Shown one piece after another: positions 18,442 through 62,890 of a DNA stretch of 64,000 nucleotides. Location of the stretch: contig JAQGEQ010000295.1 of assembly GCA_034620365.1 (NCBI GenBank), positions 124,001 to 188,000 of the forward strand, in the 5' to 3' direction. The stretch is from Pegea sp. RAD2-039 (Eukaryota; Chordata; Thaliacea; Salpida; Salpidae). Under the pieces are notes generated by a model. That model did no database searches and had not been told where the DNA came from. It saw only the letters and a program-made list of their open reading frames with translations. The first letter of the stretch is position 1, and the number at the start of each line of letters is the position of its first letter. A program made the position numbers and the translations under genes.

Positions 18442-18455
18442 CTTCACATTTATTG

Positions 18456-18458
18456 TAA

Positions 18459-18489
<31 letters not shown>

Positions 18490-18490
18490 A
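18456..18490 (+). repeat. AATA tandem tail of the retrotransposon
   Basis: Eight tandem AATA units follow TTGTAATA. Microsatellite-like tails in place of poly(A) are usual in the CR1/L2/RTE range of LINEs. The tail joins directly to GGTTTTTG of the A repeat. Confidence 0.85.
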
Positions 18491-27400: not shown

Positions 27401-27971
27401 AGGAAAAAACAAAGGCCTTCATCACAAATCAGTTCCTTTTGAGTTTTGGTCTTAGTAGAAACTAATAGATCAAAAATATTTAGTTAAAAAGGACCTTAAT
27501 AAAAGTGCTGAATTTGTATCTTCAAGTTTGCATTGACTGTAGATATTTCACAGCTTGAAAGTTTCATTTTACAATAGAAATAAGATTCACCACCTTTTTT
27601 GTTGGCTATGTATGCTACCAAAAGATTGAGCAGTACAATTACATCCAAAAATAAATATTTCTGTTCCAATTTAGTTGGTCAAATCTTGTACAACAGCTTC
27701 AAATCAACTACAAGAAAATAATTTCATTATGTTTCGACAAGCTCAAAGTTATGTTTGTAACATCAATTAGTTTGACATCGATTACTATCTCTACAATAAT
27801 ATCGAATTCAAGATAGAAGTTTGAATAATTCTTTAACAAAAAATATTTCAGAATATGGTTTATATCTTTAAAACTTACTCAGCTGTTAAATGAGAATTAA
27901 ACCAAACTATAAAGGTCGAATGATTAATATAAGCAAATAAATGTGTTAAGTAAAAGTCATTTTAAACCAAA
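21480..27971. repeat. A repeat, copy 1 (6.49-kb unit)
   Basis: Bounded by recurrence of GGAACGTATGTTATATGAGA at 21480 and 27972, a period of 6,492 bases. It has no retrotransposon: the insertion site is intact at 24975-24990. The short conserved frame of the array lies at 23177-23278. No gene is supported; the longest open frame is the 64-codon passenger at 26787. Confidence 0.88.
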
Positions 27972-33900: not shown

Positions 33901-34674
33901 TCAATTTTATGAAACCATTTTTTTTGTATTTGGTTTTATGCAAAGAACAAACTATACTTATGCATGATTTTACATAATTTTCTTTTATTGACCCTTTTAG
34001 AAATTCTCATGAAGTGTTAAACGTAGTCATTTGTGAAGATAAAAAAAATATCAATAGAAAGCGCTGTTATGTTAGCAATACAAAATTTTAAGAAGAAACA
34101 AAAGCCTTCATCACAAATCAGTTCCTTTTGGCTTTTGATCTGAGTGGAAACTAATAGATCAAAAATATTTAGTTAAAAACGAACTTACTAAAAGTATTGA
34201 ATTTGTATCTTCAAGTTTGCATTGACTGTAAATATTTCAAAGCTTGAAAGTTTCATTTTACAATAAAAATTAGATTCACTACCTTTTTTGTTGGCTGTGT
34301 TTGCTACCAAAAAATTGAGCAGTACAATTACACCCAAAAATAAATATTTCTGTTCAAATTTTATTGGTCAAATCTTGTACAACAACTTTAAATCAACTAC
34401 AAGAAAATAATTTCATTATGTTTAGACAAGCTTAAAGTTCTGTTTGTAACATCAATTAGTTTGACATCGATTACTATCTCTACATTAATAATAAATCCAA
34501 GAAAGAAAGAAAGAAAGAAGTTTGTAATAATTTATTTATAATATAAAGTTCAGAATATGGGTTTTATCTTTAAAACTTTCTCAGCTGTTAAAAGAGCATT
34601 GAACCAAACTTTATAGATCAAACGATTAATATAAGCAAATAAATGTGTTATATAATAGTCATTTTAAATCAAAT
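27972..34674. repeat. A repeat, copy 2 (6.7-kb unit)
   Basis: Same order of landmarks as copy 1 but visibly more diverged from about 28490 onward, with small indels throughout. The intact retrotransposon target lies at 31550-31575. The short conserved frame is at 29802-29903. A TA-rich run is inserted near 28941-28960. No gene supported. Confidence 0.85.
34501..34520 (+). repeat. GAAA microsatellite
   Basis: Five GAAA-type units in A copy 2. The corresponding place in copy 1 (near 27806) has no tandem run, so it arose after the units separated. Confidence 0.85.
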
Positions 34675-41769: not shown

Positions 41770-43319
41770 TTTTAACCAAATAAGGGTTGTTTTATGAGAA
41801 AACCTGGAAGAGAAAACTATGATGCAGATAGCAAGGATATCATTAAAAAATCAAAATTTTCAAATTAAATAATTTTGAATTTATACTTTTGATTTGCAAA
41901 TTTAATGTCTTATCGACTTGTGAATACTTGCTACATTGTTAATAGCTACTTAGAGAAATAATAATTGCTATAGAAACCAATTATTGAGTATTTTCGTAGA
42001 GAAGATACAAAAGTAGTAATACAATAATTACATCTTATATGAAATCAAAAAGAACAGATTTTTAAAAGTTAAAAATGATAAAACCAAGAGTTTGAAATTC
42101 GTGAAATCTTGATCTCAATCTTTTTTTGTGTTTGTAGAATCAACAAACTTTAAGAAAGTCAATCACTATACACTTCGTTTTATTTGATGAAAGTTGGTTG
42201 TTATCTCAACTACTGTTAGTACTAGAAACAATTTTTATTAAACATTATGAATCATACGATTCTGCTTATAGGTGGTCCTAAGTTTTATGTATGTATGTGG
42301 TTGACACGAAGATGACAGCAGCACCTGCAACAACAAGTGAATACTTAAATATCTAAAATCGATTAATCATCACTAAAATATTCTGCTTACTGTTGTAGTA
42401 TACAGTTTTTTAAATTATAAATGTTTATGATTTAGAAAAAAGAGTTGCTTACTGTTGTTTGTAGGTTAAAAACACATTTCAGTTTAAAAATAACAATTTT
42501 AACATTTTTTATCAATAGAATTACACCATTTTTAAAAGTGTTTATTTCTTACAGATTCTATGAAAGGTTTTTTACAAAAAATTTTAATTGAATTTACATT
42601 AAAACTTTTTTTTTCAAACTGTGTAAGGTTTTTTGTTCAAACAAACAACTTCTATAAAACAAAATCAAATTTGAATTATTATCGAGTTTTCTAAGATATA
42701 GTAATAGTAAAACTCTCCGTATTGTTTCACTTGAATAAACACGATTTTCTGTCGAAATATTTCTATCATAAAGTATCAAACTGAAGTTACTGAATCAAAT
42801 ATAAAAACAAAATTCAATCACAAACGATTAAACAATTTCTTATAGAGTCACAAAAGTCACATGATTAGTTTCAGAACTATTAGAAAGACATTATTTCCTT
42901 TTTTTCTCAATCATCTTCTTCTCCACATAACAAAAATAGCCATGATAACGATAATGACTTCATTAAACTTCATCTTTGATGGTTGGTCGTTAATTTAATG
43001 AAAATTATTTCATAGTTTGTCACAAATGATATCTCATAGTTAAAACGAAAATTTTTATTGTGTAAGTTGGATTTTTTTCATTTTACTTCTAGATATACAC
43101 CAAATAATTTCTAAGAACAAAGAATCAGTTGTAGAAATGCCGTTATCCAAGTTTGCGCGTGCTTATGTATTACGTCAATAATATTTTGAAAGGTTTAAAC
43201 AGAGATAAGTAAAGTTATAAATGTTTAAATGATCTTCCAAACTAATATTCAATTAATCAATTTTTTAGTTTTATCAAAAGCAATTCAAATTAAGAAAAAT
43301 AATTTTGATATCATTTGCT
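41770..43319. repeat. B repeat, copy 3 (truncated at its left end)
   Basis: Starts at the AAATAAGGGTTGTTTTATGA phrase corresponding to about 5960 in copy 1. It includes the GATAAAACCAAGAGTTTGAA box near 42078 and the 215-base block at 42130-42345. It runs on to TTTGCGCGTGCTTATGTATT near 43153. The latter part repeats at 45255-45530. A 61-codon minus frame at 42594-42779 is not conserved in the next copy and is rejected as a gene. Confidence 0.7.
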
Positions 43320-45530
43320 TAGAGCAACTATTTAGTGTAACTCTTTGTAAGTTGCAGAAATTTGTAGATTTTAAATACTTTACTAAACAAAGAAACCAAC
43401 TTTGAAATAATTTCTAGAGAAGAAATTTATTTTGTTATGAAAAATTTCTAATAAAATTGATAGAAAAACAAAATTACAAACAAATTATTTCATAAAAGAT
43501 TTGTTTGATTGAAAGTTTTACAAACTAATACCTGCTTTGTTTCAAATTTTTAATCCTTAGATAATTAAATTGTTATAGATTGAATTCAATTTTAGATGAT
43601 CGTTTATGAATGAAAGTTTGGGACGAGTAGTGAGTGCATTTTAATTTTACACTTTCGGTACTTTCACAAAAAAGTTAATGTGGCTACTTATCTAGCTTAA
43701 ACCAGTTTGGTTAGTTAGTATACTAACTAAAGTATTATATCACTTTAACTTTTTTAATTCTGTGGCTAACGATAGAGATGTCACATAACTTTGGCCAATT
43801 ATACACATGTCATGTAAATTATCCATAAGTTAACTGTTAAGCTACATATCCATTTTCGCCAGATTTCTGAAATATTATGAAATCTAATAAGCAAACCAAC
43901 AATCTATAATCTTGATAGATTCTTATATTAGTTTTTTTAAAGTGAACTTTTTTATTAAACTATCAATAATGTGGAAAACGACGACCTGTTAAAATATAAA
44001 TTCGGCTTGTAAGAAATATAAATTGATAAATAAAAGATGCCTATAAGCCAGATAAGTAAGTAAGATAATAACTTTAAGAGCAAAACTGAAAAAAAAGATG
44101 ACGCAGTAAGCAAGGGTAGCTTTAGAAAAAAATCAAAAGTTTCTAATAAAGTTTTTCCAACCAAATCTTTTTAATTTACCAATTGAAGACTTATTTGCTT
44201 CCTTAGCATTTAATAAGTTGTAAAATCAAAAGTATTAAAATGTAATTGATGACATTTCAAGATGTTTTGGAGTTTTTTTCGAGTTTTACTTGTTCCTATC
44301 TCTATGTTTCAGATTTTGTTCTGCATGGTTGGCAATAAACTTATAACTCACTAACAGCGACTTGTTAACAGCTGCTACATTGTTAATAGTTACTTAGATA
44401 AAAGATGATTGCTAAAAAAACCAATTATTGAGTATTGTCGTTGAGAAGATACAACAGTAGTTGTACAATAATTACATCTTATAGGAAATCAAAAAGAACA
44501 GATTTTTAAAAGTTAAAAATGATAAAACCAAGAGTTTGAAATTCGTGAAATCTTGATTTCAATCTTTTTTTGTGTTTGCACAATCAACAAACTTTAAGAA
44601 AGTCAATCACTATACACTTCGTTTTATGTGATGAAATTTGGTTGTTATCTCAACTACTGTTAGTACTAGAAACAATTTTTATTAAACATTATGAATCATA
44701 CGATTCTGCTTACAGGTGGTCCAAAGTTTTATGTATGTATGTAGTTGACGCAAAGTTGACAGCAGCACCTGCAACAACAAGTGAATAATTAAATATCTAA
44801 AATCGATTCAGCATCACTAAAATATTCTGCTTACTGTTGTAGTATACACTTTTTTAAATTATAAAAGTTTATGGTTCACATAACTAGTTGCTCACTGTTG
44901 TTTGTAGGTTAAAACACATTTCAATTAAAAAATGAAAATTTCAACAAAACTCATCAATAGAATTACTCCTTTTTTAAACCTTTAGTTTCTTACAAATTCT
45001 CTGAAAGGTTTTTCACACAAAATGTTAATTGAATTTACATACAAACTTATTTTTTTCAAACTGTTTAAGGGCTTAGTTCTTTTACATCAAAAAATTGATT
45101 TTAAAGAAAATGGGATTTAAATTTTTTTTTTCTAAGATATAATGATAGAAATAAACCATGCCATATATCAGCGGTAAAATTATCCAAATTGTTCCACTTG
45201 AATAACACGTTTTTCTGTCAAAATATTTGTATAAATTTACTTCATAGTTTGTCACAAATGATATATCATAGTTAAAACAAAAATTTTCAATATGTCAGTT
45301 AGTTCTTATTCATTTTACTTCTAGATATTAACCAAATACTTTCTAAGAACAAGGAATCAGTTGTAGAAATGACGTCATCAAAGTTCGCGCGTGCTTATGT
45401 ATGACGTCAATAATATTTTTAAAGATTTAAACAAAGACAAGTAAAAGTTATAAATATTTAAATGATCTTTCAAACTAATCTTAGAATAATCAATTTTTTA
45501 GTTTTATCAAAAGCAATTAAGAAAAAAAAC
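43320..45530. repeat. B repeat, copy 4, in tandem with copy 3
   Basis: Begins with TAGTGTAACTCTTTGTAAGT, the same phrase as near 5086. It includes the 215-base block at 44570-44790, here open for 72 codons, and ends after the paired CRE box. The offset to copy 3 is about 2.2-2.45 kb, so copies 3 and 4 form a direct tandem. Confidence 0.75.
45370..45409. promoter_or_regulatory. Two CRE palindromes bracketing a CpG-rich core
   Basis: TGACGTCA occurs at 45370-45377 and again at 45402-45409, with TTCGCGCGTGCTTATG between them. CREB/ATF and related bZIP factors bind this palindrome. The paralogous box at 43140-43180 keeps the core, but both palindromes differ there (TGCCGTTA and TTACGTCA). Function is inferred from the motif only. 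Confidence 0.45.
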
Positions 45531-47024
45531 GTTAACATTTACTGAATGTTTAGTTTTTGAAAAATCCTTTTTTACTAAAATTTCATCAACATTTAACATT
45601 AAAACTGGTCGTCATCTTATGAACCTGCAAAAATTGAATGAAAATTTTTTATTTTGAATTTTTATTTAAATACTTACTTTTTATCAATTTTAATTTTCAA
45701 ACATCCGAAGTAAATTTATTTAGAAAATATTAAAGCTACCTTTTTATATATTTTTATTTTTGTGTAAAAACATTTTTACCTCAAAAATAAAATTTACAAT
45801 AAGCTTCACAACATACCTGTAAACAAAACTCTATTTTTAGAATTCGATTAATCACAAAGTTACCGCCAGAAGCACTTAGTGACACCTAAATGACAATTAA
45901 GAGTAATTAGACAAATTTGTAAAAGTAGACTTTAATGAAATTCAGCAAACGAAATTATAGTAATTTGTTATCATGTTTGTCAAGTTATAATCCATATAAA
46001 ATGTAACATTAAATTACGTTTCTTAATTAAAAGTTTTTGTTTTAGTTTATTTATAAAAAAAATATATAAAGTAATAATAAATACCCAAACGTCTACGAAG
46101 TGATAGTTTTTATAAAAAAAATAAAATTTAGGGAATGTTTTGTTTGTAACATTTTCTAAAAATAAAATTTTAATCATTAACCAATCAAACTTTGAAATCC
46201 TATATTTGCTTCAATACTCGTAAATTTTAGTTTTGTATTTCTATCACTGAGTCAGAACTTTTATAAGAATTTTTGTACACATGCAGGTTACTAATTTGAA
46301 CTAAAACTATTTTGAATCTACCAATCGATTATATTTACCATTTGACTTAAACCTATTATTTTCCAACTCGCTGAATTTTTGATTTAATTACATCTAAACT
46401 TGATTTGTTTAACTTTTATAATAGTACCTAACAGTAATCTACTATGCAATTTTTGATATTAAGCATTTCAAACTAATTTCCAAAAAAATTAAACTTTGTT
46501 TCTATGATTTATCTTGTATATTAAAAAAAAGTGAAACTAATAACTTTAAAGTTCCCCAAAAAATATCCATAAAACATTAGATTTTATCTGTACAAAATTT
46601 GTACATTTGTAGTAAATTATATAAAATAAGTTCGAATTAATGAAAAAAAACTAATATTTAACATATAGAATTATAGATAAGAAATACTTTTACTGGAATA
46701 CTTTTGTAGTCAGGGTGATTAAAACCACAAACAAAATAAGAAAATTAGTCTTGAATTTAATTTGAATAGTGAATAATAATTCAGTTCAGTAAAAACTTGA
46801 CAATAAGAAATTGTAAAATATTAAAAACAGTGCAGTCACCACTTATTCAAAAAGATTAAAAATATTTATATTAATTGAATAAATAAACTCTTTTTTAAAT
46901 AAAAAGAATAATTATTTAGTTTTATTCGTTTACACAATTTAAACAAACAGATGTTTGGTTTTATAAAGTCCTTTATACAGCTTTTCATAAAAAAATGAAT
47001 CTTATATCACTTTATTTTGTTTTA
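45531..47024. other. AT-rich region without recognised gene
   Basis: No coding signature; the 65-codon minus frame at 45980-46177 is Phe/Lys/Ile-rich noise. I see no clear repeat match. Confidence 0.45.
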
Positions 47025-47340
47025 AACAATCCAGATTTGAATGCTTAACGTCATGATACAAAACTAAATTAAAATTGAGAAATGTCATTTGGAGTAGTTA
47101 TATCATAACTATCGTATATAAATAAAATTTACTAAATGAAATTTTGCTGACTTAAAGTAAAACATCTTTTATTTTAGTAAAGAATTGTGTACAGATTAAT
47201 CAACTAAATCTTTTTTTAAAGTGAATACTTAAATATCTACAATCGATTAATGATTACTAAGTTTTTCTGCTTACTAATGTAGTTTGCAATTGTTTAAATT
47301 TAAAAGTTTAGATTCGATTAAAGAAGTTTGTAACATAAAA
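47025..47340. repeat. Displaced copy of the E2F 3' flank joined to a B-repeat tail
   Basis: 47025-47215 matches 4855-5040 (for example TTTGAATGCTTAACGTCATG against TTTGAATGCTTAGTGTCATG). It runs directly into a phrase that in B copies 3 and 4 follows the 215-base block (AGTGAATACTTAAATATCTA, also near 42338). Confidence 0.65.
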
Positions 47341-50300
47341 AAATGAGTTACTAACTTTTGTTTAGGTTCAAAAAACATTTCATTTAAAAAGTTACATTTC
47401 TTAACAAAATTTATCAGTAAAAATACACCATTCACAAACTTTGATTTCTGCATACACTGTTTATGACAATGTAAAACATGTTTTCTTTAAATGATGGATC
47501 TATTTGATTAATTCTATTTTTGCTTTTAATCTAAAATGAAAATAAAATAATTGTGAATCCATATTTAATATTCACACTTCGGTTTTTAGATTTATATTTT
47601 TGGTTTAACAGTTTTTTTACCTTCTCTTAAAGTATTAACAATTTAGCACATTTTGATCGTAATTTGTTTTTCTTTACATATCTCAAGATGATTTAAAAGT
47701 CATCAATTTTTTAAATACAACCAAATACTAAAAACAACAAGAATAATCAAAATAGTAACTTACTTACTCTTAAAAAAAGTTTAATGGCTATATCATAATT
47801 TAGTTGATTTCCAGTTTTAACCTTAATAAGAACTGTTTTATCTTTCAAGTTTTGATTATTTAATGATAAAGAAATTTGAGCATTATTTAAAAACTTTGTT
47901 TTTTATTAGCTTGGCAGTATCAGCTGTTCTTATACATGCTTATAGTTGATGAACTTATTTAGGAAATCAAATACTTATCACATTCCATATTATTATCACT
48001 ATACCTAAAAACCTACAAGTAGTTACACTTCAGCTTATTCTTTATTTGTTATCTTATTTAGACTGAAAAAGCCCATAAATATTCTTTTGAAGGAAATTAT
48101 TGAAAATGAAAAGCATTTTATTTTAAATATATTTTTTCTTAAAGTATGAAACGTGTTGTAAACTTTTCAAATTAATTTCAACGTATGAAATTTTAATATT
48201 TTCTTCATGATCAATTTCGTTTGATAAGAACTAAACCTTCTAGTGTGAACGTTAGACGTCCACCAGAAGAGCGATGCATGATGTCATCTTTAACTTCTTA
48301 CAGTTTAATTTGACTTCTACTTTTACTTCTTTTTGTTTTAATTTGTTTTCTTGTTGCATTTTACTTTGGATATTTAATATTATAATTGGCATATTTGTTT
48401 ACTTCATTAATACTAATCAAACTAACTGTTGAATTGCTAGTATTTGGTTATTGATTCTAATTACCAAATACAACGGTATTCGTATGAAACTAATACCAAT
48501 TTGCCAAATATAATTTTACAGTTTTAAATGAATCTAACTTTCTTTTAAATTAATAACTTAGTTGTTCAACGTTAACATTTGTCATATTTTGTCACACAAT
48601 TAACCTATGAAAATGTTAAATGGATTTAATAAAACGCTGTGTTTCAAAATTCAAAGTTTGTTTTAAAATTGTCGAAAAATTAGAGATGCAGTTCCAACAA
48701 CCTCACTAGTTTCAGTAACTGATGTTGATATGCTGTTTGTTGTAACTGGTTTCATACGAAAAAAAAAGAATTGTTGCTACATTGAATATGAAATGACGTC
48801 ATCAAGACTAGATCTTCATCAGCTATTCAATGTCGAGTCATTTTATTTTAATTGATTTAGAAGAATCAACCAAAATAAAACTAAGTCAAAAAATTAAAAG
48901 TAAACGAAGTTTATTAAATGAAATTTTCATTAAACAACAGAAACCAAAGAAAATTAATAAAACTAATTATTTTTTTTAATACTTTTTTTTAATTTAAGTT
49001 TCTTATAATTTCAAGAATATTAATTTGCTATTATAAGATTTTATAATTCAGTTTTCATTTGATGTATAAAATGGGAAATTAGATCTTCCCCATTAAATTT
49101 GTTAGTTGAAAATTGAATCCTTAAATTGTCAGCTCTAACAGCTCCCCGAAAGAGCGTTATATGACTTCATTTCAAACTAAAAAGTTTACTAATAACTATG
49201 CATCTTTGTATTCTTAAAAAAATAATAATCTATTCTTCATTAAATTTTTTATCTAATAAAAACTGAATCATTAAGTGATCAGCACTAAAAGTCTACCAGA
49301 AGAAGAGTGTATATCCGTCATATCCAGCTGCATCATGATAGGATTTTCATCTAAAACTTACTACAGTTAGATTGTTAAGATTTGATGTCTTCTGACCTTT
49401 TCTCCTAACGAGCGTTTCACCAACTCTAATTCAGCTAATCTTACTATTTGATTATCAGCATTTAGTAACTCATTTTGACTATGAATTACTGTGGTATTTT
49501 GTTCATCTGAAGTAAATTTCTATAGTGTAGTGTTAAGTATACATTTTGAACTTATATTAAACAAACAGTCAAAAATAAATCAATTATTGGTTAAATAGTT
49601 CAAGTCAAGATTACTTTTTGTACTTAGCTTTGGATTTGGCTTTTACCTTATTCTTTTGAAATATTCAAATAAAATTTTACGATGTTGTATTATTTGGTTA
49701 CATAATTTGTTTGGTGATTTCTTCAGGTTTGTGGTGAAATTGATACAATTTTGAATTTTTATTAAATGTACAAACTGAAACAAAAGTTGAAGTTTCATTT
49801 AAAGTCTTGATTAGATCTGCAATTTAATTGATGGTTGTTTCAAAACTGTAAAGTGAGTTACAGAATCTTATGATCAACACAAAGGAACATTGAAGATAAT
49901 TTTATCAGAAATTAGTAGATTAGATTTTAACAAGCCTTCACGAATATTCTTATTTATTGATGAAATTGTCTTCCGCTGCAAAACTCAATTAAATTTCGGA
50001 AAACTTCAATGTGTTCTCACTAACAACTCTAACAGAATAAAAATACTGCAATTGAATTGAAAAAAGGAATATCAACCATAACCATAACACTCATTTATTA
50101 GATTATTACTATATACTCAAAATTAAACAAGCAACAAATATAATAATCCATTCTAAATATATAGTTTTTTTTATTATTGATAATTATCTTATTCAAAGAT
50201 TTAATTTAACTTCTAAAATTGTTTAAACTTCTTACTTCTAAAATATTTTGTAAGTATATCAGTATGTAATACAAACTTTACTTTATGAGTAGAACAAAAG

Positions 50301-52010
50301 AAATCTAAAAATATTAATAATAAAGTAAAACAAATTAAGATATATATAAAATATAAACTTGGAAAATGAAAATATATTTTATTCAAATCCATAGTAATAA
50401 CGATTTATCTTAAATTAGTGTAATAAGCATAGAAAAGTTAAGTTTTCATCAAATTAATTACGGAGCAGGTCAAAGTTAACTATTGTTTTTGATTTTTTAC
50501 ATTTGTCACTAAATTACTGTTAACATCTTTTAATGGATTTTTAAAGTCGCTGTGTTTCGAGTTTCCTTGAAAATTGTGGTAACTTTAAAGATGTATGTGG
50601 TACAATATCACAGATTTAGGTATTCAATTTTGATGACCTGTTATAACACATTTGTTTTCCTGCAAAAAAACTGTACATGAGTTCGTATATATGATTTTAT
50701 GCAAAAGAAGGATTAATCGTTGCATTGTACACAAAATGATGTCATCAACATGAGGTCCTTATCATATCATCAATGTCAAGTCAAAGTATTTTAATTGATG
50801 TTACTAATAATTTTGCTTTTTAACAAATATATAAACTGAAACAACCAGTATAAGGATTTGATTATTTAAGAAAGCTTTAACATTTGCTATATCTTTTACA
50901 CAAAAAAATCCTTAGTAAATAAACTTAAATAGCAAATTCTAAAAGTTTTACTACTATTTTCAATATAGATATATTTAATTTATTTTATGTTTACTGAATA
51001 CCAAACAGAGTATACAAGTTAAAGTTTTTCAAATTTCCTCATATGTCTCTTTCAGTAAGAAACATTAAAAAGTTAGCGCTATTAATAAATTTGCATAAGA
51101 ATGAGTTATATGAAATAATTTGGATTTGGTATTTGACACTAATAAAATACAAACTTGTTTTGGTATACTAAGTCGGAGCACAAAAGCTGAAAAGTAGCTT
51201 ATCATGTTTAATTTTGTCATAGAAGATATTATTTGTGGTTTGTCCTTGTGTTTGATATGTTGTTGGTTTACTTCAATTTTGATGTAATATAACAATTATA
51301 ATATCAACTAACTTCCTTAGTTTATTAAATTCAGCTCTATACTGAATTGTGTGTATTTGATGAGTCATCTTATGTATCACAGGCAGCGGTATTCTGTTGC
51401 AATTGAAATAATTTTCAATCGAGTTTCAGTTGCAATGAAAATTAATTTCTAGATAATCTAAATTTATCCATAGTATTTATGTATTTATATACATTTTTTT
51501 ATTGAACATAAAATCAACAAGCTTTAATTTGAAAGAAAGCAAATAAAAAGAGCTTGACGATAAATTAAAAAGTCAAATCTCAAGATATAAACGACAAATA
51601 CAGCAGTAATTTTACAATTGATGATAGATGAAATTATTTGTGAATGTGAATCACTTAAAATGTAAATTCGACTAGTAGATAATAAGAACATTTTTTATCT
51701 TTGTCAGAAAAGTATGACATCAGTAATATCGTCTCGATCTTCATTTGTTGCTTGAAAAATTGATTGATACTTGAATCAGATTACAGGAGCTCAACATGAA
51801 AATTTTTTCTCCAAATCTTTCTTTAAATTTTTTAGTTTATATTAAACTTATTAAAAGACGAAAGTTATCATTCAAATAATCTTTCATTTAATTTCGGAAT
51901 AAATAGATAGTTAAACTAAATTTGAGATCCTAACTACTTAAAAGCTTTCTCAAAATGTATTTTAATAAGTAAAAAAAGAAAATAGTATTAAGTTTCTCTT
52001 AATCAAATCA
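47341..52010. repeat. Degenerate C modules and fragments of the A repeat
   Basis: Recurrent boxes appear in diverged form. Island I versions lie near 48258, 49145 and 49300, island II near 48470 and island III near 48632 and 50545. Island IV lies at 48791-48820 (with a full TGACGTCA at 48794) and near 50731. A fragment near 49780-50060 matches the A-repeat region at 19860-20140. 51330-51480 and 51700-51830 match the A-repeat boxes at 8000 and 9110. No gene supported; the 76-codon minus frame at 51065 is noise. Confidence 0.55.
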
Positions 52011-53700
52011 TGATTTAAAAAAAAATAAGTTTATATTAACTTATGTTTTCGATAAGCTAAAGAACATCTGGAAGAGCGGTATGTTATGTCATCTTATCTA
52101 TCAGAGTAAGATTTTTTTTTATTGATTTTGCTTTCTATAAATTAATTTGTTGTTTTCTTATTTCCTTTCATATTTATTGTCCTAATAGAGATTTCTAACC
52201 AAAGTAATCAAACTTGAAAAGTTAATTTTTGAAGATTGCTTTAATTTATATAACACAGCGGTATTTTTGTGGTTGTAGTAACAATTTATCTTTAATTAGT
52301 GTTATAAGCATAGATGAAAGTAAATATTTTTTAAATTAATTATTGAGTGGGTCAAAGTCAACTTGTGTTTTCAATTTTACCCAAGTTTGTCTTTAACTTA
52401 CTGCTAGGATCTTGCAATAGATTTTATAAGACGCTATTGTTTGAGTTTCTGTGAAAATTGCAAAAAACATTAAAATGCATTTAGCACCACATCCCAGATT
52501 AAACTAATCACTTTTGATGAACTGTTATTATGTTTTTAGTTTCAAACAAAGACAGATTAAACTTTAGACATGATTTTACAAATATTATTTTTATACAAAA
52601 TAAATAATAGTTGCTGCATTGTACAAAAAATGAAGTCATCAATACTAGATCTACATCAGCTGATCGATAACAATTCAAAGTATTTTAATTGATGTAGACT
52701 AACCCTTCAAAAAATACAGTAAGTGAAGTATATTAAAGTAAATGAAGTTTAAATGCAAATTTTTAGTTTTTGATACATGATTCGCTTTAGACAATTTTAA
52801 TGAATTTTATATTTTTTTGTTGAATAAAATTTATGTGTTTCTTTGACTTGTAAAGAAAAAGTATTATTTTATTTATTGAAACTATTTAAAAAATTTATAA
52901 ACTTTTTCATTCTAAAATGAATCAAAAATCATCGCAAACCAATTGTTAAAATTCACACTTATATTTGTAATGATTATTTTTTAGTAATATATTTCTCGTA
53001 GATTTTTCTAATATATAATTATATATAATATTATATATATATATTATGTAAATTATATAATATTATATATATATTATATAATAATTATACTTTTGAAATT
53101 TAGCAGTTTATCACAGTAATTTGTTCTTCTTTAAAGATCTCAAAAAGTCTTAAAAACAGTATTTTTTTCAAAATAAGAAAACTCTTCATATAATCACAGA
53201 TATAAATTAGAAACTTACCAAATCTAAACACAAATAAATGGCTTTTATCATAATTTATTTGGTTTCCAGTTTTAAAAAAGTTAATTTTCCTTTAATTTAA
53301 TTACAGGGTTGTTCAAAGTTAGCATCATTTTTTGTCGCATAATTAGTCTCGGCACTGCATTTCAAATTTGTTTTAAAATTGTAAAATATTCTCAAATCTA
53401 TTTACAACAACCTCACAGGTTTCAATAGACAAATTTAAAATCTTTTTTTTGTAATTAATTTCATAAAAAAAGAAATAGAATCGTTGCTGCATTGAAACTT
53501 AAATGACCTCATCAACACTAGATCTTCATCAGCTATTCAATTTCAAGTCAATTTTTTTAATTAATTTAGAAAACTCAACCACAGTTAATTATGGCAAACA
53601 ATTCAAAAGTAAAGAACATTTTTTAAATGAAATTTCTTTTAAGCAAGAGAAACCACAAAAAATTGACTAAAATTTAATTTCTAATAAATATTTTATTGTA
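52011..53700. repeat. C module, about 1.7 kb
   Basis: Contains islands I to IV in order: AAGAGCGGTATGTTATGTCA near 52070, AACACAGCGG at 52252, a broken island III near 52431 and island IV near 52631 with a hairpin at 52650-52698. A second island IV follows near 53508. It corresponds to about 57600-59340 and 59340-60990. Confidence 0.75.
53011..53090. repeat. AT microsatellite
   Basis: A run composed almost wholly of TA and AATA units. The paralogous modules at 58730 and 60365 lack it, so it is a local expansion. Confidence 0.8.
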
Positions 53701-55640
53701 AATTAAGTTTTTAAAACTTCATAATATAATTAATAATAAGTTTATATCAACTTATATTTTCTATAAACTAAAGAACAGCCGGAAGAGCGGTATGTTTTGT
53801 CATCTTATCTCTCAGAGTAAGATTTTTACTAATTATTTTTGTTTCTTTAAATTAAATTATTGCTTTTATATTAATTCTATTTTCTTATTTATTGTTATAA
53901 TTGTGATCCTGAACCAAAGTAATTAAACATCAAAAGATAATATTTAAATACTGCTTTTATTTATTTAACACAGCGGTAATCTTGTGTTAATTGTAAGAAT
54001 GTATCTTAAAGTAGAGGAATAACCATCAATGAAGATCGATGCTGAAATTCTGTAAAGTTGTTATCTTTTAATTTAAATTCTCACTTCTATATACGTTTCA
54101 AGATTGAAAAAAATATTTAAAATCAATTTTCAAATATTTTTATTAGCTGTACCGAAGAATATCTACATAGCAGCAAATTAAATGATGTGACTAAAACTTT
54201 CATAGTCCAGTTTTTTATAGTCCAAATATTTAAACTTCTTTTATTATCAAATTGAAAAAGTTTAATCAAATCTGATGTTTTAATTCTATATTGGAAGATT
54301 TGTAATGGATTATTAGTTTTCATTTAACAAATTTTTGAGATCATTTTTATTTATACGAATTGTAATTTTATTAGAAACATCTTAATTTTATTTAAACAAG
54401 TTGTCAGCGCTAAAAGTCAATTCAAAGAAATTAATGACATTACTTTCAACAGATTAAACTTTTCAAACTAAGTGTTAATTAGTATTTAACGATTGCTCTA
54501 TATTATAAGCCACAGTTGTATTCTAATAAGACTAATAGCCACCTAACTTAAATCTTTGTAATAAGTATAAATGAAGATAAATTTTATTTAAATTAATTAG
54601 AAAAATAGTCAAACTCACTATTGGCTTTAATTATGCCACATTTTTCACTCCATTACTCTCATAAAATTCTCATTAAATTAAAAGTGACGCTCTGTTTCGA
54701 ATTATTTTTAAATTTGTAAAAAAACCTTGAGATAAATTTCCAACAACACCGCAGATTAAAAGATAAGTTTTGTTGAACTGTTTTTATAAAAGTTTTTTCA
54801 TATAAGAAACAATAGTTGTTGAATTGCATCTAAAGTTATTTTAGCAACACTAGATCTTCATCAGCTAATCAATTTCAAATCAATTTATCTAAATTGATGT
54901 AGAAGAATAAATCAAAAAATTTTTTGTAGAAAATATAAAAGTAAACGAACTTTATTAAATGAAATTTTTATTAAGCAACAGAAACCAAAAATTTTTAAAA
55001 CTTATGTTTTCATGAAGATTTTATTTTAATTTAAGTTGGTTATAACTTTAAGAACATTTATTTGCTATTTAAGGTATTTATAATTCAGTTTTCATTTGAT
55101 GTACAAAATGGGAAATATGATCTTCCCAATCAAATTTGTTAGTTGAAAATCGAATCCTCAAAATAGCATCGCTTATAAATCACCAAGAGAGTAATCTATG
55201 ACTTCATCTTCAACCTAGTCAAGCTAAAACTTCTACTATTCATTTTACTTTCTTTTATTATTACAATATTGATAATCTATTTTTCATCATACTGTTTAGG
55301 TGATAAAAACTGAATAATCAAATAGTCAGCAAAAACAGTCTCTTAAGAAAGAGTGTATGACGTCATCTCCAGCTGCGTCACAAAAGGATTTATAAACATA
55401 ATAAAATATAATACGATATAATTATAAACATAAACATAATTTTTTAGGTATAATGTATGATGATAAAACGATCAGGAGCATCAAATGTGGTTTTACAAGT
55501 TTCCACAAGCAAAAGTCAACTCCTTTATAATATAATGAAAAACAGATTTAAGCAGGCTTCAAGTCGAACAGGTTAAATAATAAGTAACTTACACTGATCA
55601 TGATAAGTAACTATCATCACAGAACTAATTGACCAAAATA
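53701..55640. repeat. C module, about 1.9 kb, duplicated at 60990-62890
   Basis: Offset to the second copy is about 7.24-7.28 kb and the similarity covers the whole length. Shared phrases include TAGCTGTACCGAAGAATATC near 54147 (61427) and GTCAGCGCTAAAAGTCAATT near 54403 (61680). AAGAGTGTATGACGTCATCT near 55349 (62589) is also shared. The 66-codon minus frame at 54123-54323 does not stay open in the other copy. Confidence 0.8.
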
Positions 55641-56580
55641 TGCTAATTACATAAAGCTCATTGTAGTAATATCGTCTCGATCTTCATTTGTTGCTTGAAG
55701 AATTGATTGATACTTGAATCAGATTACAAGAAGTCAACTTGAAACTTTTTCTCCAAATTTTATGTTTCAATCAGAGTTTCAGCTTGCAATGATCAGTAAG
55801 ACACTCTGCAGATGGCATCAACTGTGTCTCTACATCTTTACTGGCGCACTCTGAGGATAGAAAACTTGAGCTAAGTTGGCATTCTACAGGACCTGTTAAT
55901 TAATTATTTTATTTCGATTTTGACTATTAATTGTAAAAAGTTACCTGGTAACAGAGTTGTTCTCTTTCTTCATCTGTTCATTCTGATTTTATAAGAAAGT
56001 GGCTTCCTGAAAGTTTCATAATTTGTTTCCACTTTAGTTTGAATGTTGCTTAGACTAATCATTACAACGTTTTGATGTTTCATATTCATTCAGTCTGCAA
56101 ACTAATTCAATTTAGATAAAGTATGCTAATTAAACCAAATGATTAGGATAAATCAATTTTGAAGAGTTTTGAAAAGTCAATTTTCTCAATCAGCTAATAT
56201 ACATCCTTTCAAAAGTATATCAAAATGATATATTAGTTTATTTGGTAAAGATGTTACAGAAATTTATTAAAAATGGTAATTTAAATCATATATAAAAATT
56301 TTCAAAAATAGTTGAATTTTATAATCAACCTAAAAAAACATTAGGGATAAGTTTATCAGCAAATAACAGATTAGATTTTAACAAACCTTCAAAAATATTA
56401 TTATATATAGATGAATTTGTCTTCAGCTGCAAAAGTTACTTGAAAATCCCAAAACTTCTAAGGTTTTTCACTAACAGTTATATCAGAAAGAAAAATATTA
56501 CAATTGAATTGAAAAAAGAGATTATAGTAGATTTAACTTGTGGTTTTAAAAAATATCTTAACAACAGTCATTAGAGGATT
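55641..56580. repeat. Fragments of the A repeat inside the C region
   Basis: 55660-56060 matches the A-repeat stretch around 9110-9510, including the short conserved open frame at 55774. 56080-56300 matches the region near 9560-9790. 56340-56580 matches the region near 19990-20240. The order is the same as in the A unit with internal deletions. Confidence 0.65.
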
Positions 56581-57600
56581 TTAAAGAAAAAGGTTAAACA
56601 ATATCAGAAGCATTTATTAGGAATGTTTCATAAATATCTTATTGATAAAATCTAAGAAAAGCAACTTTAAAACAAACAGCCTCAAATGAAAGAAGATAGA
56701 AATTTATAACATTGATTCAAAAATAAGTTTTAAGTAGTTTAGTAAATCAAGCATTACCATAATAATCATTTAGTGGATAAATAATGAATACTATAAAATA
56801 AACAAGCAAAAAATATAAATATAATTATTTTTTTTAAGTATAAAAGTAATCATACTATTATAAATTATACTATTTAAAGAATTGATTAATATTCATAAAT
56901 GCTTAAAAATACTTCTGAAAAATTTTAAAACTATATCAGTGTTTAATACAAAGTTTATTTTATGATTAGAACTTAAGAAATTTAAAAAAATCGAAGATAA
57001 AGTAAAATAAGTTAAAATATATCTCAAATTTCAAGTTTAAAAAATAAAAATACTGTTTATTTAAGTATTTAAATTCATAAAAGAATTGTTATTAAAAAAA
57101 AACTAGCAAAAAAGAAAAAAAAAACTTTATTAGAATAAAAAGGACAAAATAATAGTTTTTTGTACAATTGATTTTGTATTTGAATAAATACTTAGAAACA
57201 AAAATATTGATAAATACTCAGTATATTTATTTGATTTCTATATTAATCAAAGTTAAAAAAATGTTATAATAGTAAATTTTGATCCTTAACAAAAATATTA
57301 AGTATAAACAAACAGATTGCAAATCATTATATAAATTGTATGAAGACAAATACAAAGCAAATTGGGAAAATAAATATGAATTACTACAGTAGTAAAAATA
57401 TACTATTAGTACTTTCAATTTTAATGGCCTAGAAATATTAAGTAAATTATCGACAATTTGCTACAGGCATTGCAATAAATTGCACTAATATGAAACAGGT
57501 GTCTTCTTAGAAGTTTTTAAGCATTCTAAGAGATCTTTTATGTTTGAGTTAAACTTATTCAAAGACGACAGTAATCATTGAAATAATCTTTCATTTAATT
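56581..57600. other. AT-rich, no gene seen
   Basis: Dense A/T runs; the 63-codon minus frame at 57227-57418 is Tyr/Leu/Ile-rich noise. Toward the end, TTCATTTAATTTCGG (near 57589) repeats a phrase at about 51883. Confidence 0.4.
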
Positions 57601-59340
57601 TCGGCAAAAATAGATAATTAAACTAAATTTGAGATCCTAACTACTTAAAAGCTTTTTCAAACTGTATTTTAAAAAGGTAAAATATTAGTATTTAGCACCT
57701 GTGAATGAAATTATGAAGCTTTTAATAATAATTTTATATCAACCTAAATTTTCTATAAGCAAAAGAACAGCTGGAAGAGCGGTAAGTTATGTCATCTTGA
57801 GTATGTCTCTGAGTAAGATTTTTATTACTGATTTTGCTTTCTTAAAATTAAATTGTTGTTTTATTTTTTATTTTTCGTATTTATTGTCATAATTGAAATC
57901 TCTAACCAAAGTAATCAAACTTAAAAGTTAATATTTGATGATTGCTCTAATTTATATAACACAGCGGTATTCTTTTGTTAGTAGTAACAATTTATCTTAA
58001 ATTATTGTAATAAGCATAAATGGAACTAAATGTTCTTTAAACTAATTATTAAGTGGGTCAAAGCCAACTTTTGTTTTCAATTTTATCCACATTTGTCTAT
58101 AACTTACTGCTAGGAACTTTCAATGGATTTTATAAGACGCTGTGTTTCGAGTTTCTTTGACAATTGCAAAAAAAACATAAAATGTATTTAGGACCACATC
58201 CAAATTAAAATAACCACTTTTGTTGAACTGTTATTATGTATTTATTTTCAAACAAAGACAGATTAAACCTTAGACATGATTTCACAAATATGATTTTCAT
58301 ACAAAATAAATGATAGTTGCTGCATCGTACAAAAAATGAAGTCATCAACACTAGATCTACATCAGCTGATCGATAACAATTCAAAGTGTTTTAATTGATG
58401 TAGACTAACCCTTCAAGAAAATACCATAAGTAAGATGTATAAAAGTAAATGAAGTTTAAATGCAAATTTTTAGTTTTTGATACATGATTCGCTTTAGACA
58501 ATTTTAATGAATTTTATATTTTTTTGTTGAATAAAATTTATGTGTTTCTTTGACTTGTAAAAAAAAAGTATTAGTTTTATTTATTGAAACTATTTGAACA
58601 ATTTATAAGTTTTTTCATTCTAAAATATATCAGAAATCATCGCAAACCAATTGTTAAAATTCACACTTATATTTTTAATGATTATTTTTTAGTTATATAT
58701 TTCTGTTTGATTTTTCTAACTTGATACTTTTGAAATTCAGCAACTTAATACATTAGTTTGATCTTCTTCAAAGATCTCAAAAAGTGTTAAAAATAGTATT
58801 TTGTCAAAATAAGGAAACTTTTCATATAACAACCGATATAAATTAGTAACTCACCAAATTTTAACTAAATTTAATGGCTTTTATCATAATTCATTTGGTT
58901 TCCAGTTTAAAACAGTTAATTTTCCTTTAATTTAATTACAGGGTTCTTCAAAGTTAGCATCATTTTTTGTCGCTCAATTAGACTCGGTGCTTCATTTCAA
59001 ATTTGTTTTAAAATTGTAAAATATCCTCAAATCGATTTACAACAACCTCATTGGTTTCAATAATCAACTTTGTAATCCTGTTTTTGTAATTAGTTTCATA
59101 AAAAAAGAAATACAATAGCTGCTGCATTGAATCTTATATGACCTCTTCAACACTAGATCTTTATCAGCTATTCAGTTTCAAGTCAATTTATCTATAATTG
59201 ATGTAGAAAACTCAACCACAGTAAACTTTTGCAGTAAATTTAAAAGTAAAGAAGGTTTATTAAATGATATTTTTATTAAGCAACAGAAGGCACAAGAAAT
59301 TGATTAAAATTTGATTTATTGTGAATATTTTATTTTAATT
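57601..59340. repeat. C module of the 1.64-kb tandem, first copy
   Basis: Island I near 57770, island II AACACAGCG at 57958-57966, island III CGCTGTGTT at 58138-58146 and island IV near 58334 with the hairpin at 58356-58404. A second, diverged island IV (TGACCTCTTCAACACTAGAT) follows near 59140. The spacing to the next island I is about 1,645 bases. Confidence 0.8.
58356..58404 (+). other. Island IV hairpin
   Basis: TCTACATCA at 58356-58364 is the exact inverse complement of TGATGTAGA at 58396-58404 with a 31-base loop. The same nine-base arms occur at 52650-52658 and 52690-52698. Related modules carry TCTTCATCA with TGATGTAGAAGA, which can still pair with a small bulge. Confidence 0.55.
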
Positions 59341-59438
59341 TAAGGTTTTAAGACTTCATGAAATTTTTGATATTAAGTTTATATCAACTTATTTTTTCTT
59401 TCAGCTAAAGAACAGCCGGAAGAGCGGTATGTTATGTC

Positions 59439-59460
59439 ATCTTATTTCTCAGAGTAAGAT
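59439..59460 (+). other. Island I stem-loop
   Basis: ATCTTA at 59439-59444 pairs with TAAGAT at 59455-59460 around a short loop. Arms and spacing recur near 33478, 52093, 53801 and 61082, and a T-run follows in nearly all. The conserved AAGAGCGGTATGTTATGTC lies immediately upstream. Confidence 0.5.
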
Positions 59461-59602
59461 TTTATTAATGACTTTACTTTCTTTAACTTAATTTATTGTT
59501 TTTTTATGAATTCTTTTATCATGTTTATTGTCATAATTGCAATCTCTAACCAAAGTAATTAAACATCAAAAGATAATATTTGAGGATTGCTTTAATTAAT
59601 AA

Positions 59603-59791
59603 AACACAGCGGTATTCATTTGGTAATAGTATTAATTTATCTTAAATTAGTGTAATGAGCATAGATGAAGTAAAATTTTCTATAATTTAATCACAGAGTA
59701 GGTCAAAGTTAACTTTTATTTTGATTTTTGTCCAAATTTGTCTATAACCAACTGCTAGGATCTTTCAATAGATTCAATAAGACGCTGTGTT
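59603..59791. other. Islands II and III as a long-range inverted repeat
   Basis: AACACAGCG at 59603-59611 is the exact inverse complement of CGCTGTGTT at 59783-59791. The pair recurs at 57958-57966 with 58138-58146 and, shortened by a base or two, at 10070 with 10246. Weaker A-repeat counterparts lie at 8035 with 8316, and 28627 with 28898. Confidence 0.55.
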
Positions 59792-60990
59792 TCGAGTATC
59801 TTTGAAAATTGCCAAAAAAAAAACATAAAATGTATTTAAGACCACATCCCAGATTAAACTAATCACTTTTGATGAACTGTTATTATGTTTTTAGTTTCAA
59901 ACAAAATCAGATTAAACTTTAGACACGATTTTACAAATATTATTTTTATACAAAATAAATGATTGTTGCTGCATCGTACAAAAAATGAAATTATGAACAC
60001 TAAATATTCATCAGCTGATCGATATCAATTCAAAGTGTTTTAATTGATGTAGACTAACTCGTCAAGAAAATACCGCGAGTTAGATAAATAAAAGAAAATG
60101 AAGTTGTAATGCAAATTGTTAGTTTTTAATATGTGATTCGCTTTAGACAATTTTAACAAATTTTGATTTTTTTGAAGAATGAAATTATGTATTTCTTTGA
60201 CTTTATAGAAAAAGTATTATTTTTGTTTATTGAAACTATCTGAACAATTTATAAACTTTTTCATTCTAAATTGAATAAAAAATCGCAAACTAATTGTTAA
60301 AATTCACACTTATATTTTTAATGATTATTTTTCAGTAATATATTTCTTTTAAATTTTTATAACGTATTACTTTTGAAATTTAGCAACTTATCACAGTAGT
60401 TTGCTCTTCTCTAAAGATCTCAAAAAGTATTAAAAATAGTATTTTGTCAAAATAAGAAAACTTTTCATATAACAACCGATATAAATTAGCAACTAACCAA
60501 ATCTAAACACAATTTAATGGCTTTTATCATAATTTATTTGGTTTCCAGTTTTAAAAAAGTTAATTTTTCTTTAATTTAATTACAGGGTTGTTCAAAGTTA
60601 GCATCATATTTTGTCGCTCAATTAGACTCGGCGCTGCATTTCAAGTTTGTTTTAAAATTGTAAAATATCCTCCAATCTATTTACAACAACCTCACAGGTT
60701 TCTATAGACAAATTTGAAATCCTGTTTTTGTAATTAGTTTCATAAAAAAAAGAAATAGAATAATTGCTGTATTGAAACTTATATGACGTCATCAACACTA
60801 GATCTTCATCAGCTATTCAATTTCAAGTAAATTTTTTTTAATTGATGTAGAAAACTCAACCACAGTAAATTTTGGCAAACAATTCAAAAGTAGAGAACGT
60901 TTTTTAATTGAAATTTCTTTTAAGCAAGAGAAACCACAAAAAATTGACTAAAATTTAATTTCTTATAAATATTTTATTGTAAATTAAGTT

Positions 60991-62890
60991 TTTAAAACTT
61001 CATAATATATTTTATAATAAGTTTATATCAACTTATATTTTCTATAAACTAAAGAACAGCTGGAAGAGCGATATGTTATGTCATCTTATCTCTCAGAGTA
61101 AGATTTTTACTAATTATTTTTGTTTCTTTAAATTAAATATTGCTTTTATATTAATTCTCTTTTCTTATTTATTGTTATAATTGTAATCTCTAACCAAAGT
61201 AATTAATTTCAAAAGATAATATTTAAATACTGCTTTTATTTATTTAACACAGCGGTAATCTTGTGTTAATTGTAAGAATCAATCTTAAATTAGAGTAATA
61301 AGCATCAATGAAGATCGATGCTGAAATTCTGTAAAGTTGTTAGCTTTTAATTTGAATTCTCACTTCTACATACGTTTCAAGATTGAAAAAAATATTTAAA
61401 ATCAATTTTCAAATATTTTTATTAGCTGTACCGAAGAATATCTACATAGCAGCAAATTGAATGATATTACTAAAACTTTCATAGTCCAGTTGATTATAGT
61501 CCAAATATTCAAATTTTTTAATTTCAAATTCAAAAAGTTTAATCAATTCTGATGTTATAATTCTATATTGGAAGATTTGTAATGGATTATTAGTTTTCAT
61601 TTAACAATTTTTTGAGATTATTTTTATTTATACGAATTGTAATTTTATTGAAAACATCTTAATTTTATTTAAACAAGTTGTCAGCGCTAAAAGTCAATTC
61701 AAAGAAATTAATGACATTACTTTCAACAAATTAAACTTTTCAAATTAAGTGTTAATTACAATTTAATGATTAATGATTAATCTAATGATACTAAGAACCA
61801 CTTACCTTAATTTTGTTAAATTTTCTTTAAACTAATTTCAAAAATAGTCAAATTCACTTTTGTTTTTTCTTATGTCACATTTTTCTCTCGATTACTCTCA
61901 TAAATTTCCTATTAAATTCAAGGTGACGCTCTGTTTCGAATTATTTTTAAATTTGTAAAAAAATCTTGAGATAAATTTCCAACAACACCGCAGATTAAAA
62001 GATAAGTTTTGTTGAACTGTTTTTATAAAAGTTTTTTCATTTAAGAAACAATAGTTGTTGAATTGCATCTAAAATTATTTTGGCAACACTAGATCTTCAT
62101 CAGCTAATCAATTTCAAATCAATTTATCTTAATTGATGTAGAAGAATGAATCAAAAAAATTTTTGTAGAAAATATAAAAGTAAACGAACTTTATTAAATG
62201 AAATTTTTATTAAGCAACAGAAACCAAAAAAATTTTAAAACTTATGTTTTCATGAAGATTTTATTTTAATGTAAGCTAGTTATAATTTCAAAAATATGTA
62301 TTTGCTATTTAAGGTATTTTTAATTTAGTTTTCATTTGATGTACAAAAGGGGAAGTATGATCTTCCCTATCAAATTTGTTAGTTGAAAATCGAATCCTCA
62401 AAATAGCAGCGCTTATAAATCACCAAGAGAGTAATCTATGACTTCATCTTCAACCTAGTCAAACTAAAACTTCTACTATTCATTTTACTTTCTTTTATTA
62501 TTACAATATTGATAATCTATTTTTCATCATACTGTTTAGGTGATAAAAACTGAATAATCAAATAGTCAGCAAAAACAGTCTCTTAAGAAAGAGTGTATGA
62601 CGTCATCTCTAGCTGCTTCACAAAAGGATTTATAAACATAATAAAATATAATACGATATAATTTATAAACACAAGCATAATTTTTTAGGTATAATATATT
62701 GTGATTAAAACGACCAGGAGCATCAAATGTGGTTTCACAAGTTTCCTCAAGCAAAAGTCAACTCCTTTATAAAATAATTAAAAACAGATTTAAGCAGGCT
62801 TGGGGTCGAACAGGTTAAATAATAAGTAACTATGATTATTATGATGCTAGCATCACAGAACTGATTGACCAAATATGTTAATTACATAAA
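60991..62890. repeat. C module, copy of 53.7-55.64 kb
   Basis: Island I near 61058 and island II near 61246, then CTGTACCGAAGAATATCTAC, a GACGCTCTGTTTCG island III near 61924, island IV near 62089 and the AAGAGTGTATGACGTCATCT box near 62589. A 62-codon minus frame at 62566-62754 is not open in the paralogue in the same way and is not called. Confidence 0.8.

What the first reader, a model, noticed from the sequence alone, without database searches (positions are those of the whole stretch)
47341..62890. Recurrent four-island modules in a non-coding tandem mosaic
Short GC-richer islands recur in a fixed order in otherwise AT-rich DNA: I (AAGAGCGGTATGTTATGTCA), II (AACACAGCGGTATT), III (AAGACGCTGTGTTTCGAG) and IV (TGACGTCATCAACACTAGAT). 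Clean modules sit at 52.0, 57.6, 59.3 and 61.0 kb. Older ones sit at 48-51 kb, and the same islands are embedded once or more in each 6.5-kb A unit (20.37, 26.86 and 33.45 kb). Flanks diverge while islands stay, which implies constraint or concerted turnover. No coding frame accounts for them and I know no named element with this layout. Candidates are a structured RNA family, a regulatory/insulator array or an ancient non-autonomous element.
Basis: partly seen in the sequence, partly recalled or inferred. Interest (0 to 1): 0.75.

Follow-up and report, generated by a model that had tools for sequence, protein, structure and literature searches.

The report
Non-coding tandem array among E2F genes

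Summary
The four islands exist where stated and recur beyond chance: 15 genome matches to a 28-mer of island I (up to 3 mismatches), all in contig C53, reversed control 0. They belong to tandem modules (about 0.7 kb, in 1.65-kb dimers) and 6.5-kb units that cover most of the window, an inverted arm at C53:256-288 kb and an array at C58:837-941 kb. Three window modules (52.0, 57.7, 59.4 kb) have regular I-II-III-IV spacing; at 61.0 kb II and III are 677 bp apart. Excess conservation fails the deepest independent test: against C58 copies islands match 309/486 bases, flanks 1973/2918, p=0.085, islands lower. In C53 copies islands change at 0.3-0.85 of the mean rate, but on the unseen inverted arm p=0.23. 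No coding signal, RNA fold, Rfam or Pfam match was found. Best reading: a local macrosatellite-like duplication array within an E2F gene cluster, kept similar by duplication and exchange, with no demonstrated function. A bound DNA box (CAGCGGTATTYTGTTG) is not excluded.

The parts
47341..62890 (+).
   Evidence: self-BLAST, profile hits, repeat coverage per 5 kb
52042..52749 (+). Full module, islands I-II-III-IV in order
   Evidence: nhmmer profile hit, columns 2-663, E=3.2e-171; island starts
57746..58456 (+). Full module, islands I-II-III-IV in order
   Evidence: columns 3-663, E=2.2e-179
59390..60105 (+). Full module, islands I-II-III-IV in order (IV degenerate)
   Evidence: columns 2-663, E=4.1e-172; alignment
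48255..48911 (+). Older full module
   Evidence: columns 20-663, E=3.6e-117
53753..54043 (+). Half module with I and II; homology stops at column 287
54460..54952 (+). Half module with degenerate II, III and IV
   Evidence: columns 165-663
61034..61322 (+). Half module with I and II; homology stops at column 287; not a clean four-island module
61779..62191 (+). Half module with III and IV
   Evidence: columns 222-663
53244..53618 (+). III-IV half of the about 1.65-kb dimer
   Evidence: columns 244-661
58881..59257 (+). III-IV half of the about 1.65-kb dimer
   Evidence: columns 245-663; III vs III' z=5.4 and IV vs IV' z=16.8 over shuffles
60523..60901 (+). III-IV half of the about 1.65-kb dimer
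   Evidence: columns 244-663
50392..50801 (+). Partial older module with III and IV
   Evidence: columns 232-609
20345..20625 (+). I+II segment inside the first 6.5-kb A unit
   Evidence: columns 2-277
22382..22586 (+). III and degenerate IV in the first A unit, about 1.8 kb after its I+II
   Evidence: columns 368-577; alignment
26837..27117 (+). I+II segment inside the second A unit
   Evidence: columns 2-277
28876..29093 (+). III and degenerate IV in the second A unit
   Evidence: columns 362-578; alignment
33430..33952 (+). I+II and degenerate III inside the third A unit
   Evidence: columns 2-517; alignment
18487..24983 (+). One 6.5-kb A unit; 18487-22588 is 97.6% identical to 24980-29094
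55665..56634 (+). Segment well conserved between the C53 and C58 arrays (its first 632 bp up to 82% identical to C58 copies); codon positions vary alike
42425..57835 (.). Arm of a large inverted duplication; partner is 148359-163741 in window numbering, beyond the window, 95.9% identical over 15450 bp
3258..3419 (+). Neighbouring gene, not part of the array: exon of an E2F DNA-binding domain
   Evidence: PF02319, C53:127258-127419, E=7.0e-20
3811..4149 (+). Neighbouring gene, not part of the array: E2F CC-MB domain, one TAG inside the stretch
   Evidence: PF16421, C53:127811-128149, E=3.3e-23; reading E=5.6e-21

Best explanation
The region is an old, local, non-coding tandem-duplication array of macrosatellite type, lying in and beside a cluster of E2F genes in a 105.7-Mb AT-rich eukaryotic genome. 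An ancestral stretch of several kb was amplified by repeated tandem duplication, unequal exchange and inversion, which gave nested units (about 0.7-kb modules, about 1.65-kb dimers, 6.5-7-kb A units, E2F-plus-array blocks, and an inverted arm of at least 15 kb). Islands I-IV are short GC-richer stretches of those units. They catch the eye because the DNA around them is only about 21-27% GC and because the modules descend from one ancestor. Within C53 they have changed somewhat more slowly; across the older C53/C58 split they have not. Shown: tandem, nested and inverted structure, confinement to C53/C58 (lower-bound searches), no coding signal in the parts tested, no RNA-fold support, no island excess against C58. 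Inferred: unequal exchange as the mechanism, and absence of a sequence-specific function.
For: Self-similarity: 147 off-diagonal alignments of at least 600 bp in C53:104001-287741, including a 15450-bp inverted pair at 95.9%. Of the 13 5-kb bins from window 1 to 65 kb, 11 are 0.91-1.00 repeat-covered and two (35-45 kb) are 0.38 and 0.62 (E2F and LINE copies count too). Whole-unit homology to C58 arrays. All 67 matches of a 2-kb module probe lie in C53 or C58 (lower bound). Module mean identity to consensus 0.80, top windows not islands. Islands vs flanks against C58: 309/486 vs 1973/2918, p=0.085, islands lower (25 of 51 island occurrences usable, copies not independent). Unseen inverted arm: 12 differences in 384 island bases, 16.9 expected, p=0.23. 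Coding: in four stretches of segment 55665-56634 variability at the three codon positions is 0.096-0.119, 0.127-0.158, 0.086-0.117 and 0.111-0.143, not formally tested, and gaps of 1, 2, 7, 8, 10 and 11 bases occur; 0 Pfam families in three forward frames of 47341-57002 and three array-strand frames of 9.9 kb of C58. RNA.
Against: Base-corrected rate in 12 full modules is 0.33, 0.31 and 0.38 of the mean for I, II and III (IV 0.77), the first three in the slowest 0.8-1.4% of windows; in two partial blocks (18 and 25 copies) I 0.53, II 0.58 and 0.37, III 0.71, IV 0.85. But the islands were picked by eye from part of these copies, and overall clumping of rates is p=0.102, 0.015 and 0.052. G/C bases in islands differ less than other module G/C bases between inverted arms: 15/262 vs 136/1246, Fisher p=0.009, pooling three of the four aligned pairs, the fourth overlapping the second. 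In general C58-C53 alignments G/C bases with GC-rich neighbours are kept at 72-75% vs 61-63% elsewhere, and matches clump at 15 bp (window sd 0.1212 vs 0.1125+-0.0013 permuted; perfect windows 4.0% vs 2.7+-0.24%); copies there are not independent and gap columns were dropped; 6 of the 40 longest perfect runs listed contain CAGCGGTATTCTGTTG. AGCGGTAT occurs 37 times forward and 0 reverse in about 120 kb of C53 array (the script's label says 160 kb) and 9:0 in 30 kb of C58, the most frequent 8-mer of its composition in both. So mild constraint on some boxes remains possible.
Confidence: 0.75

Rival explanations
1. The islands, or the box CAGCGGTATTYTGTTG, of which islands I and II share the core AGCGGTAT, are protein-binding sites under selection in a repeat array (regulatory, insulator-like or chromatin-anchoring), comparable to conserved boxes in satellite DNA.
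For: 51 of 55 genome matches (up to 1 mismatch) and all 29 exact matches are in C53/C58, reversed control 2; a 23-mer around it has 35 matches (up to 3 mismatches), all in C53/C58, control 0; strand-coherent octamer; several differing flank contexts in both arrays; among the longest perfect runs between arrays; lower rate of I-III inside C53; G/C effect between inverted arms p=0.009.
Against: With the core masked in the search, so that copies are not chosen for having it, the core ranks top 2%, 48%, 27% and 58% among windows of families a, b, c, e, and CAGCGGTA is intact in 14/17, 8/9, 16/22 and 3/10 copies. Islands are not better kept than flanks against C58. Strand coherence would follow from head-to-tail duplication alone (inference).
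Confidence: 0.12
2. The modules are genes for a family of structured or small RNAs.
For: Strand-coherent modules; a predicted hairpin in IV (CTACATCA...TGATGTAG) in some copies; z=-1.86 for one copy.
Against: RNAalifold covariation term positive (unfavourable) in both alignments; 1 of 14 and 1 of 12 predicted pairs shows any double change; z-scores of the other five sequences -1.20 to 0.40; no Rfam match; no tRNA by ARAGORN, run with the bacterial code.
Confidence: 0.05
3. The array is made of decayed E2F gene copies, and the islands are remnants of the DNA-binding helix codons (RRxYDV, as in the genome's own E2F genes).
For: E2F genes lie in and beside the array; several copies read RRRVYDVI or KRVIYDFI at or near the island I position. 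Weak profile hits are more numerous than in any of 12 shuffles: 24 vs 9-22 above -2 bits, 12 vs 3-8 in the helix part, as repeated copies of one motif would give.
Against: Best score of a protein profile of the genome's own E2F DNA-binding domains over 150 kb of array is 2.3 bits; 12 dinucleotide shuffles give 0.2 to 8.6. The DNA profile of those exons finds array copies only at E=3 or worse (two LINE hits reach 0.94 and 2.7), reversed control best 1.2; the E2F gene profile finds no array copy better than E=4.6. Codon positions vary alike in the segment tested.
Confidence: 0.04
4. An ancient non-autonomous transposable element that happens to be clustered.
For: Repeated, non-coding, AT-rich with short common motifs.
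Against: Not dispersed: 67 of 67 and 75 of 77 matches in two contigs. Terminal repeats and target-site duplications were not searched for.
Confidence: 0.04

Closest known systems
Macrosatellites (for example human DXZ4, D4Z4)
   Same: Very large tandem repeats at particular loci. Openings of the abstracts of PMC3081327, PMC3018141 and PMC3599962 seen in the listing only; that units are multi-kilobase and confined to one or a few loci is recalled.
   Different: Units here are diverged roughly 2-30% and mosaic, not homogeneous; copy-number variation, chromatin and transcription unknown.
[quoted passage not shown]
   Same: Divergent non-coding repeats in nested higher-order arrangement, with short motifs that look conserved (abstract and found passages seen).
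   Different: There a 17-bp box has a single change between satellites sharing 32% identity and lies at monomer junctions; here islands are not kept better than flanks across C53/C58, and the recurrent homology break (8 profile hits) lies about 52-63 bp past island II (columns 276-287). Similarity to the CENP-B box was not tested.
Brachionus asplanchnoidis satellite CNV regions, rotiSat1 and rotiSat2 (PMC8447722)
   Same: Long tandem non-coding arrays with few genes, in a possible relative (passages seen).
   Different: Those have 154- and 143-bp monomers and elevated GC (peak about 37%); this array has 0.7-7-kb units at about 22-26% GC outside LINE and E2F stretches. That this genome is a rotifer is an inference, not tested.

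Membership tests
Macrosatellite / tandem segmental-duplication array | Kilobase-scale units repeated head to tail | tested here: met
   6.5-kb A units (18487-22588 vs 24980-29094 at 97.6%), about 1.65-kb dimers
Macrosatellite / tandem segmental-duplication array | Confined to one or few loci | tested here: met
   67/67 matches in C53 and C58; 75/77; lower bounds
Macrosatellite / tandem segmental-duplication array | Copy number varies between individuals | not testable with these tools
   one unnamed assembly only
Satellite DNA with conserved protein-binding box | Box kept while the rest of the monomer diverges | tested here: not met
   islands 63.6% vs flanks 67.6% against C58; core-masked ranks 2%, 48%, 27%, 58%; contrary hints
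Satellite DNA with conserved protein-binding box | Bound by a nuclear protein | not testable with these tools
   no binding data
Structured RNA family | Compensatory changes supporting a fold | tested here: not met
Structured RNA family | Match to a described family | tested here: not met
   0 Rfam matches in the window at gathering score
Structured RNA family | Transcribed | not testable with these tools
   no reads available
Protein-coding gene array or E2F pseudogene array | Codon periodicity or significant match to the parent protein | tested here: not met
   (one segment, no formal test)
Non-autonomous transposable element | Dispersed copies | tested here: not met
   (lower bounds)
Non-autonomous transposable element | Terminal repeats and target-site duplications | not tested
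   no search made
Centromeric satellite | Present at every chromosome | tested here: inconclusive
   found almost only on two contigs, but centromere type and chromosome map unknown and both contigs end in copies of one duplicated segment

The most novel reading that the evidence does not exclude
An array of roughly 240 kb (both contigs together) in and around an E2F gene cluster carries dozens of one-strand copies of a 16-bp box (CAGCGGTATTYTGTTG) that a lineage-specific nuclear protein binds, so that the array acts as a chromatin or copy-control element for the expanded cell-cycle genes.
Probability: 0.06. Interest if true: 0.65.

Novelty: new member of a known kind. Interest (0 to 1): 0.22.

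Why it matters
As it stands it is one more macrosatellite-like array, useful as a clear case in which islands of conservation seen by eye in very AT-rich repeats shrink when tested on copies the observer had not seen. Its place among duplicated E2F genes could matter for how that gene family expands. If some box were shown to be bound, it would be a conserved-box repeat outside the usual satellite setting.

Tried and rejected
Coding: under table 6 the window is open nearly everywhere (203 ORFs of at least 120 aa), under table 1 only nine stop-to-stop ORFs of at least 90 aa appear and they include a LINE and E2F, so the ciliate idea was dropped. E2F-relic idea: raised from RRRVYDVI-like readings; not supported, see rivals for the count excess. 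A first E2F exon DNA profile mixed strands and was redone. CRE-like TGACGTCA: first-ranked among 24 same-composition palindromes in 47341-57400 (2 exact) and in one C58 locus (4 exact), but also in 24 kb of non-array control (3 exact; 0 in a second, 13-kb control); dropped. 180-bp monomers: islands I-IV show no mutual homology; of 36 pairs only I with one upstream element, III with III', IV with IV' and the two upstream elements with each other pass z 2.5. RNA folds. Viral origin: three island patterns, 0 exact matches in viral contigs. Metagenome and genome contigs collections were not searched.

Papers: Brachionus satellites and genome sizes (listings; passages); rotifer plus E2F plus gene duplication (listing: 2 papers, neither opened); macrosatellites (listing only); satellite boxes (listing, outline with abstract, passages). 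None of these named this repeat; that is not proof that it is unpublished.
Full report
What was checked. The window is C53:124001-188000 of a 105.7-Mb, 387-contig genome. It is very AT-rich and has standard-code genes: a LINE with endonuclease and reverse transcriptase domains and E2F genes. Size and composition suggest an animal such as a monogonont rotifer; this is my inference from general knowledge and was not tested.

The observation. A profile built from the 57.7-kb module and iterated gives 67 hits in C53:104001-287741 plus 30 kb of C58. At 61.0 and 53.75 kb homology to the module stops after island II (column 287) and the next III follows about 0.7 kb later. In the first two A units I and II are adjacent and III with a degenerate IV lie about 1.8 kb further on; the third has a degenerate III. 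Matches to island I (28-mer, up to 3 mismatches) number 15, all in C53, control 0; for island IV 22 of 56 matches, and all 19 with at most one mismatch, are in C53. So the recurrence is real.

What it is. Self-comparison shows nested duplications: modules, about 1.65-kb dimers, 6.5-kb A units, and larger E2F-plus-array blocks (an E2F unit at 1.8-4.5 kb recurs at -6.2 to -3.5 kb and 68.5-70.8 kb in window numbering), and an inverted arm of 15450 bp at 95.9%. A second array of the same units, on the other strand, lies at C58:837-941 kb. Of the last 10 kb of C58, 9.8 kb are 97.4-98.7% identical to window 37.5-47.4 kb, and its last 5 kb are 97.7% identical to the right end of C53. Both contigs therefore end in copies of one segment; whether these are alleles, a third copy or a join cannot be told. 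Except for two matches (C50, C115) of one probe, all reported matches of the long DNA probes fall in C53 or C58; these counts are lower bounds.

Is it coding? In four stretches of segment 55665-56634 variability differs little between codon positions (0.096-0.119, 0.127-0.158, 0.086-0.117, 0.111-0.143; no formal test) and many gaps are not multiples of three. Stop-masked forward frames of 47341-57002 and array-strand frames of 9.9 kb of C58 match no Pfam family at E up to 5; the other strand was not sent.

Is it an RNA? No Rfam match in the window. Consensus folds of I-II (13 copies) and IV (15 copies) have unfavourable covariation terms, and six single-sequence folds have z from -1.86 to 0.40. 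Island III was not folded.

Are the islands constrained? Four tests. (1) In 12 full-length C53 modules, with a base-composition correction, I, II and III change at 0.33, 0.31 and 0.38 of the mean rate and IV at 0.77; in two partial blocks (18 and 25 copies) I 0.53, II 0.58 and 0.37, III 0.71, IV 0.85. Overall clumping of rates is p=0.102 in the full block and 0.015 and 0.052 in the partial ones. The islands were chosen by eye from part of these copies. Pooling three of four aligned pairs, the fourth overlapping the second: 33/649 vs 338/5210, p=0.20, and for G/C bases alone 15/262 vs 136/1246, p=0.009. (3) Against C58 copies: islands 309/486, flanks 1973/2918, p=0.085 with islands lower; island I 52% vs 68%, II 76% vs 69%, III 79% vs 74%, IV 63% vs 62%; G/C bases 98/194 vs 352/697, p=1.0. 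Of 51 island occurrences in the window 25 had a usable alignment and 26 were dropped; the copies are not independent. (4) For the commonest box, with the core masked in the search, its conservation ranks top 2%, 48%, 27% and 58% in four repeat families. Taken together: at most a mild slowdown inside C53, and no ancient constraint shown.

Residual signals. AGCGGTAT is the most frequent octamer of its composition in both arrays and always on one strand. CAGCGGTATTNTGTTG has 29 exact genome matches, all in C53/C58; 51 of 55 with up to one mismatch are there, one of them (C58:830105) outside the array span and on the other strand. Between the arrays G/C bases with GC-rich neighbours are better kept in general, matches clump at 15 bp more than in permutations, and 6 of the 40 longest perfect runs listed contain the box. 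Head-to-tail duplication can explain the strand bias; the rest keeps a binding-site reading alive at low probability.

Verdict. A real, non-coding, macrosatellite-like duplication array in an E2F gene cluster; islands real but not shown to be special. New member of a known kind.

Noticed in passing
14117-18482: LINE retrotransposon (ORFs of 334 and 1024 aa, endonuclease and RT domains), 99.2% identical to a second copy at C53:210258-214624, in which the long ORF is split into 140 and 832 aa; both are flanked by array sequence.
   Followed up: partly
C53, C58, C79, C6, C21, C18: The E2F/DP family looks expanded: 15 stretches over the Pfam cut-off for the DNA-binding domain, 6 of them in C53 and 4 in C79; 12 CC-MB stretches.
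   Followed up: partly
L040 (C58:966596-976595) and C53 right end: Both contig ends are copies of window 37.5-47.4 kb at 97-99% identity.
   Followed up: yes
40472-41026 (+): 184-aa open frame, GC 35%, in one of the less repeat-covered bins; no Pfam match for a 173-aa part of it.
   Followed up: no
L017, C53:263829-264402 (window numbering 139829-140402): Simple repeat of about 570 bp, GC 13%, reading as repeats of YLFTYLLI in three frames, beside an inverted module.
   Followed up: no
C53:243729-245225 and C53:251430-252908: Two open frames of 499 and 493 aa in a 2457-bp pair at 97.2% identity, a recent duplicate gene outside the array.
   Followed up: no
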